DNA of 55,461 nt from a virus: IMG/VR virus record IMGVR_UViG_3300031653_000002, positions 1-55,461 of that record. The stretch is one strand, 5' to 3'. The stretch's first letter is position 1, and the number at the start of each line of letters is the position of its first letter. A program made the position numbers and the translations under genes. This document shows, piece by piece, positions 1 to 55,461 of the stretch. The notes under the pieces were generated by a model. That model was given only the letters and a program-made list of their open reading frames with translations. It did no database searches and was not told where the DNA came from.

Positions 1-10
1 CAATCTTCCC
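1..10. repeat. Terminal direct overlap, left copy
   Basis: CAATCTTCCC at 1-10 is identical to 55452-55461. Merging the two copies keeps the polymerase frame and places motif B the expected distance after motif A. The window is thus a closed circle, or a circularly permuted genome opened at an arbitrary point, of 55,451 bp. Confidence 0.9.
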
Positions 11-12438: not shown

Positions 12439-12483
12439 TTTTGTCAATGTGCCCAAGGGTTTGTTATGGGACTATGGAAATAC

Positions 12484-12574
12484 GTCCGATAACATGGGGC
12501 GATAGCCAGGCAGTCCGATAATGTTGCAGGTGTTATAGGACGTTGGGATGCTGGGATGTGGAAAGTCCGATAAC
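12484..12574. repeat. GTCCGATAAY repeat array, left side
   Basis: Exact direct copies lie at 12484, 12513 and 12565, with weaker relatives at 12602 (TATCGGGTA, reverse) and 12815 (GTCCGAT). The same 10-mer recurs on the far side of the cassette at 18286-18533. The stretch 12439-12849 has no gene; besides this array it holds the promoter at 12682. Confidence 0.82.
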
Positions 12575-13537: not shown

Positions 13538-14689
13538 GTGGATAATGGGGATCAACAATTAGTATGTTATAATTGTGAAAGCGAAATAGACGGCTGCGAT
13601 TATCAAGAAATAGACAACGAGATATACTGCCAGAGCTGTTACGATGAACTGTTTTGTTGTTGCGATAATTGCAATGAAACAGTATCGATCGACAATACAC
13701 ACTGTATTAATGATGCATGTATTTGTGATGATTGTTTCGATAATAACTATTTTTGTTGCGATGATTGCAGGGAATATAATCATAACGATAGTGCTATTAA
13801 TGCAGCAAACGGGGACACCATTTGTGAAGGATGTTACGGGGAAAATTATTTTACTTGTGAAGGATGTTATGAAGTATATCATGTGGATTGCTCTTGTGAT
13901 GGGTATTGTAATTGTTGTTACAATCAAAACAATAGCGGATGTTTGCACAATTACACGTATAAACCCGATCCAGTTTTTTACGGTAATGAAAAGGATAATT
14001 TATATTTTGGTATTGAACTGGAAATAGAATCACAAAGCAATGATATTGACGATATTGTTGAAAATATGAATGAATATATGTATGCAAAAGAGGATAGCAG
14101 TCTTGACAATGGATTTGAGATTGTATCACACCCTGCAACCTGGGATTGGATCAATAGCAATAAAAATTTGTGGAATGATATTTTAAGGCTTAAAGACGGA
14201 GGATTTAGGAGTTATAATACCGACACTTGTGGTATGCACGTTCATTTGAGTAAAGAAGCATTTTCATCCTTACATCTGTATAAGTTTTTGAAAATGTTTT
14301 ATGAAAATCAAGAGTTTATATTGACAATAAGCAGACGTAGAAAACATAACCTGGATAGATATGCCAGTCTTGAAACAGATGAAAGTATTGTATATAAAGC
14401 AACAAAAAAGTGTAATGGCCATACCAAACGATATACCGCAGTAAACCTTGAAAATAGCGAAACGATAGAAGTAAGGATATTTAGAGGCACATTGTCTGAA
14501 AACGGGTTTTATAGAAATATTGAGTTTTGCAAATCTTTATTTGAATTTACAAAAGAGGCAAGTCTTAAAGATATTACTGTATCTAAATATTGTGATTATG
14601 TAATGGATAACGAAAATACATATCCGAATTTAGCGACGTTCCTAATTGATAAGGAACTAATATCAACATTATTTAGCAGGGGACAATAA
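13538..14689 (+). CDS. Putative amidoligase with N-terminal LIM-like zinc modules
   Basis: GTG start at 13538, five bases after TAAGGGGG; the overlapping ATG at 13536 opens only eight codons. Residues 10-135 contain repeated CxxC...CxxCY units (about four treble-clef, LIM-like modules). Residues 155-383 match amidoligase-type enzymes of the GCS/glutamine-synthetase superfamily: YFGIELEIES, SSLDNGFEIVSHP, TCGMHVHLS and IEVRIFRG. Such enzymes form ATP-dependent amide bonds on a carboxylate. The adjacent class II amidotransferase, itself with a zinc module, would supply ammonia or act on the product. The substrate is unknown; the zinc modules may recruit it. Confidence 0.82.
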   Translation: MDNGDQQLVCYNCESEIDGCDYQEIDNEIYCQSCYDELFCCCDNCNETVSIDNTHCINDACICDDCFDNNYFCCDDCREYNHNDSAINAANGDTICEGCYGENYFTCEGCYEVYHVDCSCDGYCNCCYNQNNSGCLHNYTYKPDPVFYGNEKDNLYFGIELEIESQSNDIDDIVENMNEYMYAKEDSSLDNGFEIVSHPATWDWINSNKNLWNDILRLKDGGFRSYNTDTCGMHVHLSKEAFSSLHLYKFLKMFYENQEFILTISRRRKHNLDRYASLETDESIVYKATKKCNGHTKRYTAVNLENSETIEVRIFRGTLSENGFYRNIEFCKSLFEFTKEASLKDITVSKYCDYVMDNENTYPNLATFLIDKELISTLFSRGQ

Positions 14690-15418
14690 ATGTGTGTTAT
14701 AATCTATAAACCCAAAAAAGCGTATATAACACGTGAAACACTATCCGAATGTTGGGATGAAAATCCAGACGGCGGAGGTTTCATGTACTCAAAGAATAAT
14801 GTTTTACAAGTACACAAAGGGTTTATGAGTTTTAGAAAATTTTATAAACAATATAGAAAATGTGAAAATGATAATGATAGTAATTTTGTAATCCATTTTC
14901 GTATTGCAACAAGCGGATTGATAGATAGTAACAATTCACATCCGTTTTACGTCAATAAGAGTTTAGGTTTCGTTCACAATGGTATATTAAATTGCGTGGA
15001 TGTGCCCGAAAAAAGCAACAGATCCGATACTGCTATATTCAATGAAACAGTATTAAAAAAATTACCTAAAACTTTTTTGAAACAAAAAGCATATCATATT
15101 ATGCTGGAATCTATTGCCAGACAACAATGCTCTAAATTTGCATTTATGGATAATAAAGGGACTTGTTATATATTCAATGAATGTGCGGGTGTTTGGCAAG
15201 ACGGAATTTGGTTTAGTAATCAGAGGCATAAATGGGACTCGGTATTTCCGTCCAAAAAAACGGAGAAAACAACAACAGTTATTATTGAAAACGAAAAATG
15301 GATCGAATGTTATTGTTGCGGAGACTTTTACCCTGTTTCAGAATGTGTTGGTTTTGGCAATGATTTAATATGTTCGGTGTGTGCAAACGAATGTGAAAAG
15401 GATTACATTTTCAAATAG
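14690..15418 (+). CDS. Class II glutamine amidotransferase with C-terminal zinc module
   Basis: The product starts MCVIIYK, so Cys2 becomes the N-terminal nucleophile after Met removal. Further family motifs follow: NPDGGGFMY (25-33), HFRIATSG (69-76, with Arg71), SHPF, FVHNGIL (94-100) and RSDTAIF (111-117). After about residue 205 it carries a treble-clef-like zinc unit (CYCCGDF and CSVCANEC) similar to those on the amidoligase. It begins directly at the amidoligase stop, so the two are co-translated. Together they probably make an amide modification, target unknown. Confidence 0.88.
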   Translation: MCVIIYKPKKAYITRETLSECWDENPDGGGFMYSKNNVLQVHKGFMSFRKFYKQYRKCENDNDSNFVIHFRIATSGLIDSNNSHPFYVNKSLGFVHNGILNCVDVPEKSNRSDTAIFNETVLKKLPKTFLKQKAYHIMLESIARQQCSKFAFMDNKGTCYIFNECAGVWQDGIWFSNQRHKWDSVFPSKKTEKTTTVIIENEKWIECYCCGDFYPVSECVGFGNDLICSVCANECEKDYIFK

Positions 15419-17874: not shown

Positions 17875-18129
17875 ATGAGTAAAGAAATTCAACTTGTTAT
17901 TAAAAAAGAGGATATATCTAATATTCCAGACTCAAAACAAATTAAAAATATTATCATTACCAAGTTGGTGAACGGGTATATTTATGATCGCCCAAAAAAG
18001 GATAGATTTATCCGATGCACAAGTTTTAGATTGCCCGATCCTATAGTAGATAAATTAGAGGAAATAAGTAAAAGTAATAAAATAGGGATAAGCAAACTAA
18101 TCCGGCACATGATAGGATTTGATTATTAA
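17875..18129 (+). CDS. Ribbon-helix-helix-like protein (84 aa)
   Basis: The C-terminal half (CTSFRLPDPIVDKLEEIS, then KIGISKLIRHMI) has the strand-helix-helix pattern of RHH DNA-binding proteins such as CopG and Arc. Residues 1-40 may be a separate dimer or ligand arm. It is the last gene of the cassette and sits next to the repeat-rich region, so it is a candidate binder of those repeats. Confidence 0.65.
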   Translation: MSKEIQLVIKKEDISNIPDSKQIKNIIITKLVNGYIYDRPKKDRFIRCTSFRLPDPIVDKLEEISKSNKIGISKLIRHMIGFDY

Positions 18130-18285
18130 CACAGTAGAAAAAAAGAGGGGATAAAATGAGTATTGAAACCGCGGATTGATTACACGGTAGAAAAAAGGAT
18201 GATAGTGTTTCGTGCTCATAATTTTCAAATAACAAAATAAACCTCCCACAATTACCCGTCATGCCGACGATCTGTCGCCCAACAG

Positions 18286-18533
18286 GTTATCGGACTCCAC
18301 ATGGCGGGTCATTCCTTATCCGTCCCGCATTATTATCGGACGTCCAGTCCTAATTACCACGTGTCCAATCGCTAAACCCAAGCCATTATCGGACTTACCA
18401 TTGGATTTACCCCAATTTCCAAAACCAATTCCCAGTTATTATCGGGTATTACCGCGTCCGATAACCGTTTCGTCCCATATTCAATCCCATTCGCGTCGCC
18501 TATCCACGTCCGATAACGTCTGAGTCCGATAAT
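18286..18533. repeat. GTCCGATAAY repeat array, right side
   Basis: Reverse copies at 18286, 18332 and 18385, a reverse variant at 18438 (ATTATCGGGT), and forward copies at 18456, 18508 and 18524. With the left array this gives nine exact copies in the genome region. The change of orientation makes the array roughly symmetric around 18450. Confidence 0.85.
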
Positions 18534-18671
18534 CCCCGCTCTGGCGTACCCCATGTCGCCCCCCAGGGTTGTTTGTTTTCATTGGTCAAAGGAAACATCT
18601 GTGCTAATTCGACCTAAAATCTCAGACCCTATATCCCATCCAACCCATACAATCCCTACAACATGAATTCG

Positions 18672-18957
18672 GTGTCCTATGGTGCCATTTGGTGTCCTAT
18701 GAATGTCCCTTCCAAACGGACACCGTTTTCCCCATTTCCAGCCTAAAAACCCACAATATGAACCCCGTGTCCTATGTGTCCTATCACTTCTTTATTTCTA
18801 TTTCCTACAAAAAGTATATAGGGAAGGAAAAAGGGAAATCTCATAGGACACATAGGACACCGATTTTGAATACTACCCATTTTCCCGCTTATTAGCCCAA
18901 AAAAGCCCTTTTTACGCCCAACCCAAAAAAGGTCTCATAGGACACCACATAGGACAC
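18672..18957. repeat. GTGTCCTAT iterons, four forward and four reverse
   Basis: Forward 9-mers at 18672, 18692, 18767 and 18776; reverse copies (ATAGGACAC) at 18843, 18852, 18937 and 18949. The two halves mirror each other around an A/T-rich core with a purine/pyrimidine switch. Two pairs are in direct contact (18767/18776 and 18843/18852). Such arrays are typical binding sites of replication initiators. Confidence 0.88.
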
Positions 18958-18959
18958 CA

Positions 18960-20318
18960 CTATGGGAGATAATCTCTTGCCTCTGCCCCGGACTTAAATT
19001 TAAGCCCATTGTAAACATAATACCTACTATCCCTACCGCCCATTCTCCGCTTCGTCGCCTTCGGGAACTGTCTTGCTACTTCCTTCCCGAATGTCTTGCT
19101 TGACATCACCATATACCCGTTATCCCGCCCCCACTTTTTATAGGTATCATATACCGTCTTGGTCCTTACCCCAAAGTGGTACGATTCATCCCACTCATAG
19201 CTCTCCGCGAGAAACATAGCCGCAGGGTTCGATTCCTCCTTATACGCTTCCCACAGCTTCTGACTGGCATCGGCTATCACAAACCTGCGATTAGCTTTCA
19301 AATCCTTCAATCCCTCAATAGCCCAGTTCAATATCCCCGGCAACTCCTCAATAAGCTTATTATCCAAATAAGGATCAACAATACTCGTATCTACCCTATT
19401 AAAAGGCACAACTACCAATCTCCTCCACGTACCCATGCTCTTATCGGTAAAACTGGGGAAATCATTCGACAAAATCAACAGCTTCGCCGTAGCCTCCGCG
19501 GTGAATCCATGCCCCCACTTCCTCTCATAATCAACGCCATCCTTACCCGTCCAAGCCTTAATTATAGCCTCAACCTGCGGAGTCAATTCCTGCTCGGCAT
19601 CTCCGGCCACATTCAATTTCTTCCCATACGTCATATACAACGCAAATTTATCGACGAACCTCCGCAGGGGCACATCGCTACAATTCTCTTTTCCGAGCAT
19701 AGCCTTCATTACCCTGGCAAACGTACTCTTTCCCGTAGCGGCTTCTCCCTTGAGTAGCAGGAAAGACTCATACTCCTGCGTAGGAATCAACAGGTATCCC
19801 GCCCATTGCTGCAACGTCCGTCGCAACTGAGCATCCTCCATCGTAACCTCATCCACGAATTTCATCCACTTGGGACACTCTGCGGAGGGATCGTACCCAT
19901 AGGGCATTTTATTAAGGGCAAAGAAGTCCGGGGTATTCTTTTGTATTTTGGTCTCTCCATTATCTTCAAACGTCACAATCGATTTATTCGTTACAATCGA
20001 ATTCTGAGGCTCGTTGTTGTCCCTAAACCACGTATCCGGCAATCTCTCACTCACGACATTGGATAATGCCTTCAAATTAAGCATGACATTCTCTATCAGG
20101 CTGGTCGAGCACTCCACCGATAATCCCGCAATATATCTAACCAATAGGGCTTTAAGGTCATCTTTCCCCCTCTTTCGGAATATCCCATCATCCCAGAAGT
20201 AGAAATCCTCACGCCAATATATCATAGACCTCTTACGGTCGTCTCCCCAGTCTATATGTCCAATTTCCATATAGAAAGAGTATGCAATCTCCGCCGGACT
20301 TGGTTTCCTCTCAGCCAT
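18960..20318 (-). CDS. SF3 replicative helicase / primase C-terminal protein (D5/P4 type)
   Basis: The 452 aa product has the superfamily 3 motor: Walker A GEAATGKST (191-199), Walker B-like KLNVAGDAEQE (234-244), the sensor strand KLLILSNDFP (279-288) and an arginine finger GTWRRL (296-301). A D5-type N-terminal region precedes it and a winged-helix end follows. The ATG at 20318 has GAGGAAAGAACTA in front; the upstream TTG at 20342 is rejected. It is the only minus-strand gene and reads away from its own promoter at 20455-20482 toward the iterons at its 3' side. It should load at the origin and unwind DNA for the PolA enzyme. Confidence 0.9.
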   Translation of the reverse strand: MAERKPSPAEIAYSFYMEIGHIDWGDDRKRSMIYWREDFYFWDDGIFRKRGKDDLKALLVRYIAGLSVECSTSLIENVMLNLKALSNVVSERLPDTWFRDNNEPQNSIVTNKSIVTFEDNGETKIQKNTPDFFALNKMPYGYDPSAECPKWMKFVDEVTMEDAQLRRTLQQWAGYLLIPTQEYESFLLLKGEAATGKSTFARVMKAMLGKENCSDVPLRRFVDKFALYMTYGKKLNVAGDAEQELTPQVEAIIKAWTGKDGVDYERKWGHGFTAEATAKLLILSNDFPSFTDKSMGTWRRLVVVPFNRVDTSIVDPYLDNKLIEELPGILNWAIEGLKDLKANRRFVIADASQKLWEAYKEESNPAAMFLAESYEWDESYHFGVRTKTVYDTYKKWGRDNGYMVMSSKTFGKEVARQFPKATKRRMGGRDSRYYVYNGLKFKSGAEARDYLP

Positions 20319-20342
20319 TAGTTCTTTCCTCTTGTTCCGCAA

Positions 20343-20454: not shown

Positions 20455-20482
20455 ATTATACCATAAAGGCCGTTCATTTCAA
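20455..20482 (-). promoter_or_regulatory. Minus-strand promoter of the helicase gene
   Basis: On the minus strand TTGAAA (20482-20477), a 16-base spacer and TATAAT (20460-20455). The transcript would begin near 20448, at the first base of the leader stem. It diverges from the promoter at 20509. Confidence 0.78.
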
Positions 20483-21000: not shown

Positions 21001-21254
21001 TGAAAGAATTACCAAGTCATAAAGAATGTCAAGATGCTGTTGAAGCTGGTGAAGATACAGCCCTCCACAAATTCATCTACGACCAAGAACCAGCAGGTAG
21101 AGAAGACGAGGAAGAATTTAGAAAAGGACTGTTGGACGTTATAAACGAGGGGAGGAAAGCCACCTTAAAGTGGGTAAAAAGGGAAGCTATTAGTTTAGAT
21201 GAACGTGGGGATATAAGTAGGAAAATTATTGATAGAGAAATAGAAAAATTATGA
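21000..21254 (+). CDS. Acidic helical hypothetical protein (84 aa)
   Basis: Preceded by GGAAAGGAGAAGATA and overlapping the next gene by four bases. The product is charged and helical (HKECQDAVEAGEDTALHKF), with no known motif. Confidence 0.6.
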   Translation: MKELPSHKECQDAVEAGEDTALHKFIYDQEPAGREDEEEFRKGLLDVINEGRKATLKWVKREAISLDERGDISRKIIDREIEKL

Positions 21255-21673
21255 AAATGCCTAAGACAATCGACCTCGGATTCGGAGACGTCGTAGAGGT
21301 CTCCTATCTTGAGGAAATATTCAAAATATCGAGACGCACCGCCCTGAAATATCTACAAGCTCTACGGATAGAACCGTTATACGTTGGCAGTGACGTTTAC
21401 TTCTCCCTCAATACTTTCAAAAGAATTATGTTCGTACTGTCCAAACCCAATTCGCCAGGGTTCGTATTTCCGGGGAGCAACAAGAAAAACAGTCCGAGAT
21501 ACCGCAAGGCTCCGACATCAATCGTTCGAGTGACAGACGAGATTCTTGCAGAAGCCGCTAAACCGGAAATACTATCTGAGATGGCTGGATCATCGGGTAG
21601 AAATGACGCCATCCTAAAACAATTTGTGACTAAGCCAGTTGGTAGACCCCCTAAGAAGGAGGAGAAAGAATGA
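21251..21673 (+). CDS. Helix-turn-helix protein with AT-hook-like tail (140 aa)
   Basis: Residues 17-60 look like a winged helix (VSYLEEIFKISRRTALKYLQ followed by a short wing), as in excisionases or MerR-type proteins. The C-terminus ends with PVGRPPKKEEKE, an AT-hook-like minor-groove element. Position upstream of the terminase makes a packaging-initiation (small terminase-like) or late-regulator role possible. Confidence 0.6.
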   Translation: MKMPKTIDLGFGDVVEVSYLEEIFKISRRTALKYLQALRIEPLYVGSDVYFSLNTFKRIMFVLSKPNSPGFVFPGSNKKNSPRYRKAPTSIVRVTDEILAEAAKPEILSEMAGSSGRNDAILKQFVTKPVGRPPKKEEKE

Positions 21674-25525: not shown

Positions 25526-27517
25526 ATGGGATACCAGTATCTATTGCCGAAAAATAAAGAGCAATCAGAGGATATTATTGCCAAATTGATCCTCGAGGGT
25601 AGGGCAAAAAGAAATCCACAATCGATTAGATGGTGGGTGGCAAATTTTTACCTCCAGGGGATTAGGGAATTTTCAAGCCTCGATTACACATCCGGTACAG
25701 TTTCTATCTCATATCTGAATGAATCCGGATTGGTTAATTTACGATATGAGGAAATCGTGGCCAAGTATCAATCACAACTGGGACGATTGATGTCCTTAGA
25801 TTTATCCCCCTTCGTGGATAAGAAGGGCGTGAGTCTGGATGGGATGCGTAAATCAAGTATAGCTCAAGTCGTGCTCGATGCCGCTATTCCACAGGATAAG
25901 GTGAAAAAGTTGGAACTGGATTTAATGCCCCCGCTCCTTATGTACGGGACTGTGGGAGTAGGAATCTGGATGGAAGATAAGGATAGCCAGGGAATAGAGG
26001 TTATTATGCCTTGGGAACTGTTGCCTATTCCGATTGATATTTCTGGCCCCACAGATGTTAGGGGTCTTATACGAATACGATTTGTGCCTGTTGAGTGGAT
26101 TAAGAACTTAAATATAACCCCCAAAGGAAATAAGGCCTATAGCGGCATGGACGATATTAAGGTCCCCGCGGGAAATATGCCGATAGATATTGATTCTAAC
26201 GGTAGTGGCCTCACAACGGCTACTGCTACGGGAGGTGGATTTTATATTAAATCTAACTCTGGCAATTGGAAAGGCAGTGGTGGGAAGAAAGTAAAAGACG
26301 AGCACGATGTCCCGGTTACACAGTTGATAGAGATTTGGACAGAGACCAGTGATGGCTATTTGGCTGAATACAGGATTTATGCCGGGATGACTAAGCTAAA
26401 GGAGCTTGCAAGATTCGACCATACAGCGTCCAAATATCACATGCCTATACGTACAATCAGGGACGTCACTATAGGTAGTTTCTGGGGCAGAAGTTATGTT
26501 GACCAACTTATCCCTTTGAATAATAAGATTGAAGAAGCATTATCGAGTATATTTGAATCGGTAGCTGATTTTGATTTATATGGATTACAGCTTTGGCCAG
26601 CTACCCTGGGAACTCCTCCCGAAGCACTTCGAGGACAGGATGGGATAAAGAGAATCGTATATGAACCGGACTATACCAGTCCGGACTTGAAGCCTGAAAA
26701 TATAATGCCAGCTAAAATGACGAATCCCCAACTACAGGCTCTCAACGTGGCGTCGGAGATGATGGATAAGATTGCTAATCAGCCGAGTTCCCTTATGAGC
26801 GGAGAGGCTCCGGGACGTTCTGATTCTGCCAAGGGATTTGGATTCTTATACGAAACATCCAGTATTCCACTTTCGCCCACGGCTAAAAGTATTGCATGTG
26901 GATTATCCGGAGTTTATAGGGCTTTGTTGCGTATTTTGAAGGATTCTTGGGATGATAAGAAGGTAGTCAATATCACGAGCCTTGATGATTCTCTTGCGGG
27001 GATTGTTCTCGATTCCGAGTCTTGGACACTTAGCCTGTCACAAAATGCAATTCCTTTCCCAGATGAGGTATCGGTTACGATTGCCTCCGAAGTTCCTATC
27101 TCTAAGGAACAGGAAAAAATGGAGATAAAGGAAGCCCTTGCAGAAAATAGGATTACGTTAGATGAGTTTAATTGGACTGTGAGGAAAAAAGGACTCAATC
27201 TACCTGTTGGGGACGAAGTAAGTTGGCAAAATTATCGTAGGGCGATGCTTGAAAATATTCAACTATTCGCGGATGGTCAAACTCCGGGGGACAATGTTAA
27301 GGTAGCCCCCAACGATTTACACCGAGTACATCTGATTGTATTGCAAGCGTTTGTTGCCCGACCTGAATTTTTTGCAGCCTCCGCAAATGTTAGGAATAAA
27401 TTTTATACCCATATAGACGAACATAAAGCTGCAATGGGACAAATGCCAGACCAGCTTCCATACATAGAAGATATTGCTGCAGCCTCGTTGGGGCAGCCTG
27501 TTCAACCAGAATTCTAA
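25526..27517 (+). CDS. Portal protein
   Basis: The 663 aa product is placed between terminase and scaffold and has portal features: an N-terminal helical wing (IRWWVANFYLQGIREF), a stem-like segment with RSYVDQLIPLNNKIEEALSS, and a long C-terminal helical region. Length matches portals of podovirus type. It forms the dodecameric ring at one capsid vertex through which DNA passes. Confidence 0.85.
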   Translation: MGYQYLLPKNKEQSEDIIAKLILEGRAKRNPQSIRWWVANFYLQGIREFSSLDYTSGTVSISYLNESGLVNLRYEEIVAKYQSQLGRLMSLDLSPFVDKKGVSLDGMRKSSIAQVVLDAAIPQDKVKKLELDLMPPLLMYGTVGVGIWMEDKDSQGIEVIMPWELLPIPIDISGPTDVRGLIRIRFVPVEWIKNLNITPKGNKAYSGMDDIKVPAGNMPIDIDSNGSGLTTATATGGGFYIKSNSGNWKGSGGKKVKDEHDVPVTQLIEIWTETSDGYLAEYRIYAGMTKLKELARFDHTASKYHMPIRTIRDVTIGSFWGRSYVDQLIPLNNKIEEALSSIFESVADFDLYGLQLWPATLGTPPEALRGQDGIKRIVYEPDYTSPDLKPENIMPAKMTNPQLQALNVASEMMDKIANQPSSLMSGEAPGRSDSAKGFGFLYETSSIPLSPTAKSIACGLSGVYRALLRILKDSWDDKKVVNITSLDDSLAGIVLDSESWTLSLSQNAIPFPDEVSVTIASEVPISKEQEKMEIKEALAENRITLDEFNWTVRKKGLNLPVGDEVSWQNYRRAMLENIQLFADGQTPGDNVKVAPNDLHRVHLIVLQAFVARPEFFAASANVRNKFYTHIDEHKAAMGQMPDQLPYIEDIAAASLGQPVQPEF

Positions 27518-53449: not shown

Positions 53450-55461
53450 ATGATTGAATTCGAGAGACATTCTGATTGTACCCTGTGTTCCCTGCATGAA
53501 TCGGCTAAGAACCCCGGTATACCTACGAGACCTTTCTACCCTATTTTAGAAATAAATACTGATAGGGCGATATTGTTCGTAGGTCAATCCCCCGGATACA
53601 ATGAGGATAACAAGGGACAATCTTTTATTGGATATACGGGGAAGCTCTTGGAGTCTTTTTGTTTGGCATCTGATTTGGAATCTTATGCCGATATTTATTT
53701 TTCAAATTCATGCAGATGTAAACCTCCGCAGGGTGCCGATGAATCTCAATCCTGTATGCGAAGCTGTAGGCCGTATCTACAGGAGGATTTGGATAAACTG
53801 TACGAGCACTATAAGGAGGTTATCATCTTCAACCTCGGTGCAAAGGCCGTCTACAGTACGATGCACATAACATCTCTCAATGAAGCATTAAAGAAACAGG
53901 CACAGAAGACAGAGGTATTCACTCAGAAGCCGAGAGTATTTTCTACTTTCCATCCTGCCATACTTCACTCTACTCGGAAGCCGGGATTGGTACGTGCAGT
54001 AGAAGCCCATTTCTCTTTGGTCTTACGATATTTACAGGGACAATTTATCCCGAACGAATTGAAGATAGAGCCGGAACTCGGAGTGGATGTGCCGGATACG
54101 TTGCCCGATGAGGTCGCAGTTGATATAGAAACCTACGGGATATTATCCGGATGGGAGCAGACTGTATTTCATCCGATTAAATCCAAGATGATAGACAAAG
54201 TTGATTATAAGTATCAAGTGGTTACAGTTAGTTTTGCGTGGGAGGACAACAATGGTAAAATCAGAACCGCGGTCTATATCTATAACTGGAAAAAGCACAG
54301 GAAAAAAATCGTTTTGTGGTTTAAGCGAATATCCGAGCAGAAAAAGACCTGTCTCGGACAAAATATTAAATTCGATTTGCTCTACTTGTACTTATCCGGG
54401 AACCCTGAACTGTCCTATTGGATTGATCCCCGTAGATTAAGACTTGATGATACTCTGATACTAAGTTTTCTATTGTATGAACAACAACCGGAGAAGGGAC
54501 TCAAGGAGCTATCGACTTTATTCGGCATAACAGATTATTCCGGATTACGTGTCACTGGGAAATCTGGTACTGCTAAGTCCAATAGGGATAAGGACTTACA
54601 TTACTACAACTGCCTCGATGCAGCGGCGACACTTGTACTCGCTAAAGAGCTGCGGAGGAGAATTGAGGAGAGATTCGGGAAGAATTCTTATAAACTAAGT
54701 GACACTTGTGCATGGATGCGGAATACTGTATTGTGGGATACTTTCTTTTTGGAAAAAAATGGAAGTTCCTTTAACGTTAAGAAGTTAGTAAAATATCATA
54801 ACGAAGAAAAGAGAAAGTGTAATGACCTCCTCGAATCTGCATGGGACAACTTCGGCATTAAGTTAGCCGGTAAAAAGTCCGATGCCCCGTTGAGACAATT
54901 GATGTTGGATTGTGTTGACGAGGCTGGACTTATGGGAGACCCCAGAGTTGAGTGGTCTAAAAAAACAGGTAAAATTTCTATAGGAGTCGAAAATGTCAAC
55001 CTCATCAAATCAATACTTAGCGTCGGTAGAAATGCTGACATCATTTCCAATTTTCAAGAGTATAAAGAGCGGTCTAAGATTATCTCCACGTATACGGGAC
55101 CTTTACTCAAAAAGCCCCGACAAGGAATCGTCACTCGATGTCATGGTGGAAGAATTGGCACTGTTTTCCCTAATTGGTATCCTGTACCCCTCTATGCGGA
55201 TAGAGGAGGCGGGCGAGACGACAAAGCCGGAGGACAAATCCAAGGAAGATTCTCCTGCAAAAAGCCAGCCCGACAAACCGAACCTCCAAGAATCCGAAGA
55301 TGTCTCTGCTCAAGATGGCCAAACGGAAAAGTCGTAGAGTATGACATTAACCAAGACCACATAAGGATGGGGGCATTGTTATCAGGAGACCCCCATCTAC
55401 TTGGGGCATATCAAGAGGCGGGAATAAGCGTCCATGCCCAGACCGCATTGACAATCTTCCC
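53450..55461 (+). CDS. UDG-exonuclease-DNA polymerase A fusion, N-terminal part
   Basis: The frame is open to the window end and continues at base 11. Residues 1-195 form a family 4-type uracil-DNA glycosylase domain: CTLC at 10-13, VGQSPGYNEDNKGQSF (44-59), CRC at 88-90, C102 and C106, and FHPAILHS (167-174); the cysteines suit a 4Fe-4S cluster. Residues 220-420 hold a 3'-5' exonuclease (VAVDIETYG, LGQNIKFDLLYL, YYNCLDAAATLV). Motif A, VVEYDINQDHIRMGALL, lies near residue 638, with His where Glu is usual. SPO1-type polymerases have a similar UDG-PolA architecture. This is the replicative polymerase. Confidence 0.93.
   Translation, partial: MIEFERHSDCTLCSLHESAKNPGIPTRPFYPILEINTDRAILFVGQSPGYNEDNKGQSFIGYTGKLLESFCLASDLESYADIYFSNSCRCKPPQGADESQSCMRSCRPYLQEDLDKLYEHYKEVIIFNLGAKAVYSTMHITSLNEALKKQAQKTEVFTQKPRVFSTFHPAILHSTRKPGLVRAVEAHFSLVLRYLQGQFIPNELKIEPELGVDVPDTLPDEVAVDIETYGILSGWEQTVFHPIKSKMIDKVDYKYQVVTVSFAWEDNNGKIRTAVYIYNWKKHRKKIVLWFKRISEQKKTCLGQNIKFDLLYLYLSGNPELSYWIDPRRLRLDDTLILSFLLYEQQPEKGLKELSTLFGITDYSGLRVTGKSGTAKSNRDKDLHYYNCLDAAATLVLAKELRRRIEERFGKNSYKLSDTCAWMRNTVLWDTFFLEKNGSSFNVKKLVKYHNEEKRKCNDLLESAWDNFGIKLAGKKSDAPLRQLMLDCVDEAGLMGDPRVEWSKKTGKISIGVENVNLIKSILSVGRNADIISNFQEYKERSKIISTYTGPLLKKPRQGIVTRCHGGRIGTVFPNWYPVPLYADRGGGRDDKAGGQIQGRFSCKKPARQTEPPRIRRCLCSRWPNGKVVEYDINQDHIRMGALLSGDPHLLGAYQEAGISVHAQTALTIF
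55452..55461. repeat. Terminal direct overlap, right copy
   Basis: CAATCTTCCC identical to bases 1-10; see the left copy. It falls within the polymerase coding sequence. Confidence 0.9.

What the first reader, a model, noticed from the sequence alone, without database searches (positions are those of the whole stretch)
18672..18957. Mirror-symmetric GTGTCCTAT iterons next to the helicase: likely origin
Four forward and four reverse 9-mers flank an A/T-rich core in a region without genes, and two pairs are in direct contact. The SF3 helicase gene ends at the last iteron. SF3 helicases of the D5/P4 type often recognise nearby origin repeats by their own accessory domain. The combination strongly suggests a bidirectional origin.
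Basis: partly seen in the sequence, partly recalled or inferred. Interest (0 to 1): 0.75.

Follow-up and report, generated by a model that had tools for sequence, protein, structure and literature searches.

The report
Phage origin beside its helicase gene
Eight identical short DNA tags, arranged as mirror images around an easily melted stretch beside a viral helicase gene, are very probably where this phage starts copying its DNA, and the same layout turns up beside related helicase genes in many other phages and plasmids, including an archaeal plasmid origin that had been described as a hairpin.

Summary
In detail: eight exact GTGTCCTAT 9-mers (++++----) lie at 18672-18957, against at most four clustered copies of any 9-mer in shuffled windows. 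They fill a convergent intergenic gap 2 bp beyond the stop of the only minus-strand gene, a 460-aa D5-type SF3 helicase with a C-terminal RFX-like winged helix. Best explanation: a replication origin at which the helicase binds the iterons through that domain and melts the 58-bp AT-rich core. Comparison supports this. A 60%-identical relative (L041) has the same mirror array and core, but its iterons have changed together to GTACCCTAC. Among 93 related helicase loci, an inverted pair of tandem 9-bp units is strongly enriched just 3' of the gene (score >=23: 20/92 vs 1/169 control regions), and a 9-bp period stands out. The layout is that of SaPI/PICI and P4 origins. It also matches the required pRN1 'stem-loop' (21-nt arms of tandem TGTCC units, 58-nt loop), which therefore reads as an iteron pair. 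Not shown: binding, initiation, direction. GC skew gives no support for bidirectionality.

The parts
18960..20342 (-). SF3/D5-type replicative helicase (initiator), 460 aa, no primase domain; the only long minus-strand gene
   Evidence: Pfam DUF5906 2e-15, RFX_DNA_binding 2e-10, Pox_D5 3e-6; PHROG primase families; AlphaFold pLDDT 92, best fold match SaPI5 primase-helicase Z 31.9
18993..19223 (-). C-terminal RFX/Pox_D5-type winged helix (aa 374-450), proposed iteron reader
   Evidence: Pfam; PDB RFX5 and RFX1 matches by sequence and by profile
19419..19754 (-). SF3 AAA+ core (DUF5906, aa 197-308)
18672..18680 (+). iteron 1, GTGTCCTAT
18692..18700 (+). iteron 2, GTGTCCTAT
18767..18775 (+). iteron 3, outer unit of left inner tandem pair
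18776..18784 (+). iteron 4, inner unit of left inner tandem pair
18785..18842 (.). 58-bp AT-rich core, proposed melting site; contains ATATACTTTTTGT (read on the minus strand), conserved in L041
18843..18851 (-). iteron 5, inner unit of right inner tandem pair
18852..18860 (-). iteron 6, outer unit of right inner tandem pair
18937..18945 (-). iteron 7
18949..18957 (-). iteron 8, ends 2 bp before the helicase stop codon
18287..18394 (-). second array, left half: GTCCGATAA on the minus strand at 18287, 18333, 18386
   Evidence: motif conserved in L041
18456..18532 (+). second array, right half: GTCCGATAA at 18456, 18508, 18524
   Evidence: motif conserved in L041
12464..12573 (.). distant cluster of the second motif (3 exact, 2 with one mismatch); relation to the origin unknown
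20455..20482 (-). predicted promoter of the helicase gene (11/12 consensus); no iteron nearby

Best explanation
The 286-bp element is the phage's replication origin, of the kind used by SaPI/PICI Rep and P4 alpha. The helicase binds GTGTCCTAT through its C-terminal winged helix. The abutting pairs on each side of the core nucleate two oppositely facing assemblies, the four outer iterons add initiator, and the SF3 motors melt the 58-bp AT-rich core so that phage polymerase and other proteins can load. Shown by sequence: the array, the protein's domains, the position, and recurrence of the layout in relatives. Inferred: binding, melting, double-hexamer assembly and fork direction.
For: Array far above chance. 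Helicase carries an RFX-type winged helix, and its best structural match is the SaPI5 primase-helicase. An IMG/VR DNA scan for two close iterons, made without reference to helicases, returned 33 loci; four have an SF3 helicase gene ending next to the iterons (L034, L029, L019, L014). L034 (33% identical) has GTGTCCTAT x2 at its very stop, a 60-bp AT-rich core and mirrored degenerate copies; L073 has three tandem GTGTCC units 6 nt after its stop and inverted GTGTCCCAT copies. L041 (60% identical) keeps array position, mirror layout (4 + then 3 or more -), 63-bp spacing and core, while its iterons changed together to GTACCCTAC. In 93 non-redundant loci an inverted pair of tandem 9-bp units lies 3' of the helicase gene: score >=23 in 20/92 vs 1/169 control regions, Fisher p 3e-9; period 9 stands out among 6-13. 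Inverted repeats chosen without regard to internal repeats match themselves at offset 9 (67%, and 74% in an outside set), against 18-35% at other offsets. Functional precedents: SaPI/PICI origins lie just 3' of rep with two iteron sets flanking an AT-rich region, and a Rep-ori segment drives plasmid replication; the C-terminal domain of the SCCmec helicase Cch2 binds direct repeats downstream of its gene; P4 crr is 3' of alpha, with annotated type 1 repeats 9 bp apart; Sfi21's annotated 302-bp origin abuts its SF3 primase gene.
Against: No binding, replication or read-depth data for this phage. GC skew gives no origin signature. The dyad is detected in only about a fifth to a quarter of related loci, and core length varies widely. 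In pRN1 no sequence-specific binding of ORF904 to the origin was seen. Similarity of iterons tracks winged-helix similarity no better than ATPase-domain similarity (rho 0.21 vs 0.29), so that analysis does not single out the reader domain; the L041 co-change is one case.
Confidence: 0.84

Rival explanations
1. The inner inverted repeat (18-nt arms, 58-nt loop) acts as an extruded stem-loop or rolling-circle origin, as proposed for pRN1; the base pairing, not the repeat sequence, matters.
For: The arms are perfectly complementary and the geometry is nearly that of pRN1 (21-nt arms, 58-nt loop). In pRN1 one stem mutation was tolerated only when the symmetric change was made.
Against: Four further iterons lie at unequal distances (20 and 75 bp on the left, 85 and 12 bp on the right) and cannot extend that stem in register. 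Arms in many loci are themselves tandem 9-bp repeats, which a stem does not need. No relaxase was seen among the proteins scanned (not every ORF was scanned).
Confidence: 0.07
2. The iterons are operator sites: the helicase or a regulator binds them to control transcription or its termination between convergent genes.
For: The array lies at the 3' ends of convergent transcription units; a small ribbon-helix-helix gene (17875-18129) is adjacent.
Against: No promoter of a neighbouring gene lies there; the helicase promoter candidate is at 20455-20482 without iterons. Relatives keep the array 3' of the helicase whatever the neighbours. The terminator-like hit at 18671 is within chance (4 found, 3.5 expected).
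Confidence: 0.05
3. The array is a partition (centromere-like) or packaging site.
For: Clustered short repeats in both orientations occur at centromeres and packaging sites; the second GTCCGATAA motif has two separate clusters.
Against: No ParA/ParB-type protein was seen in the proteins scanned; the large terminase gene is 4.4 kb away; association is with SF3 helicase genes.
Confidence: 0.03

Closest known systems
SaPI/PICI Rep-ori replication module
   Same: Origin directly 3' of the SF3-type initiator gene; two iteron sets flanking an AT-rich region; C-terminal DNA-binding domain on the helicase; best fold match is the SaPI5 primase-helicase.
   Different: This is a 55-kb circular tailed-phage genome with terminase, polymerase and topoisomerase genes, not an island; the helicase lacks a fused primase; the iteron sequence is its own. 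The PICI paper states that no other known bacterial replicon shares the layout.
pRN1 family (archaeal plasmids), origin 3' of orf904
   Same: SF3-winged-helix gene followed by an inverted repeat; tandem TGTCC units 9 bp apart in each arm; 58-nt spacing.
   Different: pRN1 has only the inner pair, a fused prim/pol domain, and was interpreted as a stem-loop; specific binding by ORF904 was not detected.
Phage P4 alpha with ori and crr
   Same: crr lies 3' of alpha and carries repeats in both orientations, one pair 9 bp apart; alpha binds origin repeats through a winged helix.
   Different: P4 uses GGTGAACA-type repeats, a primase-helicase fusion, and a separate ori 4.5 kb away.
Streptococcus phage Sfi21 302-bp origin
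   Same: Non-coding origin 3' of an SF3 primase gene, with inverted tandem repeats around an AT-rich core.
   Different: Units repeat every 8 bp (TTAGTTAC) and are AT-rich.

Membership tests
SaPI/PICI-type Rep-ori module | origin immediately 3' of the initiator helicase gene | tested here: met
   last iteron ends 2 bp before the stop codon
SaPI/PICI-type Rep-ori module | two iteron sets flanking an AT-rich region | tested here: met
   ++++ [58 bp, 69% AT] ----
SaPI/PICI-type Rep-ori module | initiator is an SF3/D5-type helicase with a C-terminal dsDNA-binding domain | tested here: met
   (domain by homology; binding not tested)
SaPI/PICI-type Rep-ori module | initiator binds its own iterons and drives autonomous replication | not testable with these tools
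   needs binding and plasmid assays
PICI (the whole element) | small island lacking its own virion and packaging set | tested here: not met
   55.45-kb circular record with large terminase, exonuclease, Sak4-like protein, polymerase, topoisomerase
pRN1-type origin | about 20-nt inverted arms about 58 nt apart, 3' of an SF3-winged-helix gene | tested here: met
   18-nt perfect arms, 58 bp apart
pRN1-type origin | prim/pol domain fused to the helicase | tested here: not met
   460 aa; only D5_N, DUF5906, Pox_D5/RFX matched
P4 alpha/ori | type 1 iterons of the GGTGAACA kind | tested here: not met
   iteron is GTGTCCTAT
RFX winged-helix proteins | sequence and fold of the RFX DNA-binding domain | tested here: met
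   Pfam PF02257 above its cut-off; 1dp7 and 8zjr matched
RFX winged-helix proteins | recognition of X-box half-sites (RYYNYY) | tested here: inconclusive
   GTGTCC fits only the looser RYNNYY form; binding not tested

The most novel reading that the evidence does not exclude
One initiation signal, an inverted pair of tandem (mostly 9-bp) initiator sites around a core often near 55-70 bp, placed 3' of the D5-type SF3 helicase gene, is shared by tailed phages, bacterial plasmids, satellites and archaeal pRN plasmids, while the site sequence drifts together with the helicase. The published 'stem-loop' origins of pRN1, pRN2 and Bordetella phage BPP-1 are then iteron pairs, and the loop matters as a fixed spacer.
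Probability: 0.5. Interest if true: 0.75.

Novelty: new member of a known kind. Interest (0 to 1): 0.6.

Why it matters
It gives a testable origin for an otherwise unplaced phage and a sequence signature (tandem 9-bp units, inverted, AT-rich core, 3' of the SF3 gene) by which origins can be predicted in many uncultured phages and plasmids. It also offers a concrete alternative reading of the pRN1 stem-loop and challenges the statement that the PICI origin layout occurs in no other known bacterial replicon. The pair window/L041, with one core and two iteron sequences, is a natural test of how such initiators change their recognition site.

Tried and rejected
Single-protein scans of IMG/VR with the helicase and with the 663-aa protein at 25526-27517 found nothing; blastn against phages found nothing. 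GC skew as origin test: uninformative. Sfi21 scored at background in the 9-bp scan because its units are 8 bp and AT-rich; found by the unbiased inverted-repeat test instead. Most of the 33 iteron-pattern hits have no SF3 helicase in the fetched stretch and are probably chance; L017 is a coding repeat. pDL10, a Thermaerobacter plasmid, a Bradyrhizobium plasmid and pHTUR06 showed no dyad. L151 (36% identical helicase) has no array within 700 bp. No tRNA or Rfam family in the window. The Qiao 2022 SaPI helicase paper and Foley 1998 could not be read (the latter cited through PMC6356513).

Full report
OBSERVATION. The eight GTGTCCTAT copies are exact and placed as reported. Reading along the + strand the start-to-start spacings are 20, 75, 9, then 67 across the core, then 9, 85, 12. 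The inner pairs abut and flank 58 bp. Eight copies within 300 bp compares with 3 elsewhere in the window and at most 4 in 60 shuffles of the whole window. The region is a convergent gap between the + gene 17875-18129 and the - strand gene 18960-20342. The record closes on itself: the ends share CAATCTTCCC, and the DNA polymerase ORF reads across in frame.

WHAT THE NEIGHBOUR IS. The 460-aa protein has the SF3/D5 core (DUF5906, weak D5_N) and a C-terminal RFX/Pox_D5 winged helix. Sequence searches of the PDB find RFX5 and RFX1 over that domain. An AlphaFold model (pLDDT 92) best matches the SaPI5 primase-helicase (Z 31.9, 336 residues, 3.3 A), then AsfvPrimPol and poxvirus D5/E5. It has no primase domain and is the only long minus-strand gene; its promoter candidate (20455-20482) has no iterons, so autoregulation at the promoter is not the obvious role.

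RELATIVES. A DNA scan of IMG/VR for two close iterons gave 33 loci. Four have an SF3 helicase gene next to the iterons: L034, L029, L019, L014. In L034 the iterons overlap the helicase's last codons, followed by a 60-bp AT-rich core and mirrored, degenerate copies. A profile search then found L041, 60% identical, with further genes homologous to those right of the helicase here (e.g. 60% over 139 aa). L041 has four forward and at least three reverse copies, not of GTGTCCTAT but of GTACCCTAC and close variants; the core retains ATATACTTTTTGTRGGA and the spacing is 63 bp. The wing of the winged helix differs between the two (GGRDSR vs GGHGSR). L073 (36% best segment) has three tandem GTGTCC units starting 6 nt after its stop and inverted GTGTCCCAT copies. 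L043 has a 4+4 mirror array of another sequence farther downstream, containing 8-bp spaced pairs.

GENERAL TEST. I collected 93 non-redundant related loci and scored, in 660 bp at the gene's 3' end, the best arrangement of two tandem units and two inverted tandem units. At period 9, scores of 24 or more occur in 17/93 3' regions, 1/83 5' regions and 0/87 distant 3' regions. Among periods 6-13 the excess over shuffles is concentrated at 9 (19/93 against 3 and 0), with a smaller signal at 10 (7). With other filters: 20/92 against 1/169, Fisher p 3e-9. Because the period was suggested by the window, a second test used inverted repeats chosen only by arm length (12 or more exact) and spacing (30-110): 20/93 3' regions and 7/169 controls have one, and the arms match themselves at offset 9 in 87/130 positions, against 0.18-0.35 at other offsets; in an outside set of plasmids, BPP-1 and Sfi21 it is 63/85. 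Loci share ancestry, so the p-value is indicative. The core was more AT-rich than its contig in 28 of 29 high-scoring cases (my count); core length ranged from 32 to 169.

PRN1. The pRN1 origin, shown by deletion to be required and sufficient in cis with the rep operon, consists of 21-nt arms TTATGTCCATAGTGTCCAACT and inverse, 58 nt apart: two TGTCC units 9 bp apart on each side, the window's geometry and nearly its motif. pRN2, pHEN7 and BPP-1 show the same construction, as do plasmids of Streptomyces virginiae, Deinococcus sp. and Salinibacter. Published data fit spaced protein sites: eight 3-bp deletions in the pRN1 loop abolish replication, while the authors describe the loop as insensitive to single base-pair substitution. 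Against it, no specific binding of ORF904 was detected, and one stem mutation needed its symmetric partner.

KNOWN KIND. SaPI/PICI origins lie immediately 3' of rep, always two iteron sets flanking an AT-rich region; the authors considered this unique to PICIs. The C-terminal domain of the related SCCmec helicase Cch2 binds direct repeats downstream of its gene. P4 crr (3' of alpha) and the Sfi21 302-bp origin (3' of its primase) are further precedents. The window element works like these; as a replicon module it meets every defining feature I could test. It is not a PICI: it is a 55-kb phage. Hence 'new member of a known kind', with the wider unification as the novel case.

MECHANISM. Likely steps: winged helices bind GTGTCC-type sites (inferred from domain and precedents); inner tandem pairs seat two opposed assemblies (inferred from symmetry); the SF3 motors melt the 58-bp core (inferred from AT content and precedents); forks are then built, probably in both directions, which is untested. 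GC skew does not help: almost all genes are on one strand, and 4-fold-site skew shows no switch.

UNEXPLAINED. A second array, six exact GTCCGATAA at 18287-18532 in the opposite mirror order, sits beside the origin; the motif has another cluster at 12464-12573 and persists in L041 although the helicase iterons changed there. It therefore probably answers to another protein. Candidates are the ribbon-helix-helix protein at 17875-18129 and the DNA-binding-like protein at 21251-21673; neither was tested.

Noticed in passing
window 18287-18532 and 12464-12573: Second motif GTCCGATAA: six exact copies in mirror order (---+++) beside the origin and a second cluster 5.8 kb away; conserved in L041 although the helicase iterons changed there. 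Binder unknown.
   Followed up: partly
window 1-10 and 55452-55461: Ends share CAATCTTCCC and the DNA polymerase ORF reads across in frame: the record is probably a complete circularly closed or permuted genome of about 55.45 kb.
   Followed up: yes
window 18130-20342: Only minus-strand block and a compositional island: helicase 4-fold sites are G-rich on its own strand (70 G : 33 C) while the plus-strand genes are balanced. Opposite orientation to neighbours is kept in L041.
   Followed up: partly
L068 5084-5183 (pRN1), L070 (pRN2), L069 (BPP-1): Published 'stem-loop' origins have arms made of tandem units 9 bp apart; in BPP-1 the dyad lies about 470 nt beyond the rep stop, with annotated gene bbp28 in between.
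   Followed up: yes
L165 8516-8785 (Sfi21): The annotated 302-bp origin has inverted tandem repeats with an 8-bp period (TTAGTTAC) around an AT-rich core; L043/L045 also contain 8-bp spaced pairs.
   Followed up: partly
L014 2780-3030: GTATAGGACAC-type repeats in both orientations just 3' of a DUF5906 helicase gene fragment.
   Followed up: no
L005 5547-5909: Four forward and one reverse GTGTCCTAT copies around an AT-rich stretch; no SF3 helicase was recognised in the fetched stretch.
   Followed up: no
window 13538-15418: Amidoligase_2-like gene followed by a class-II glutamine amidotransferase-like gene, an unusual pair for a phage.
   Followed up: no
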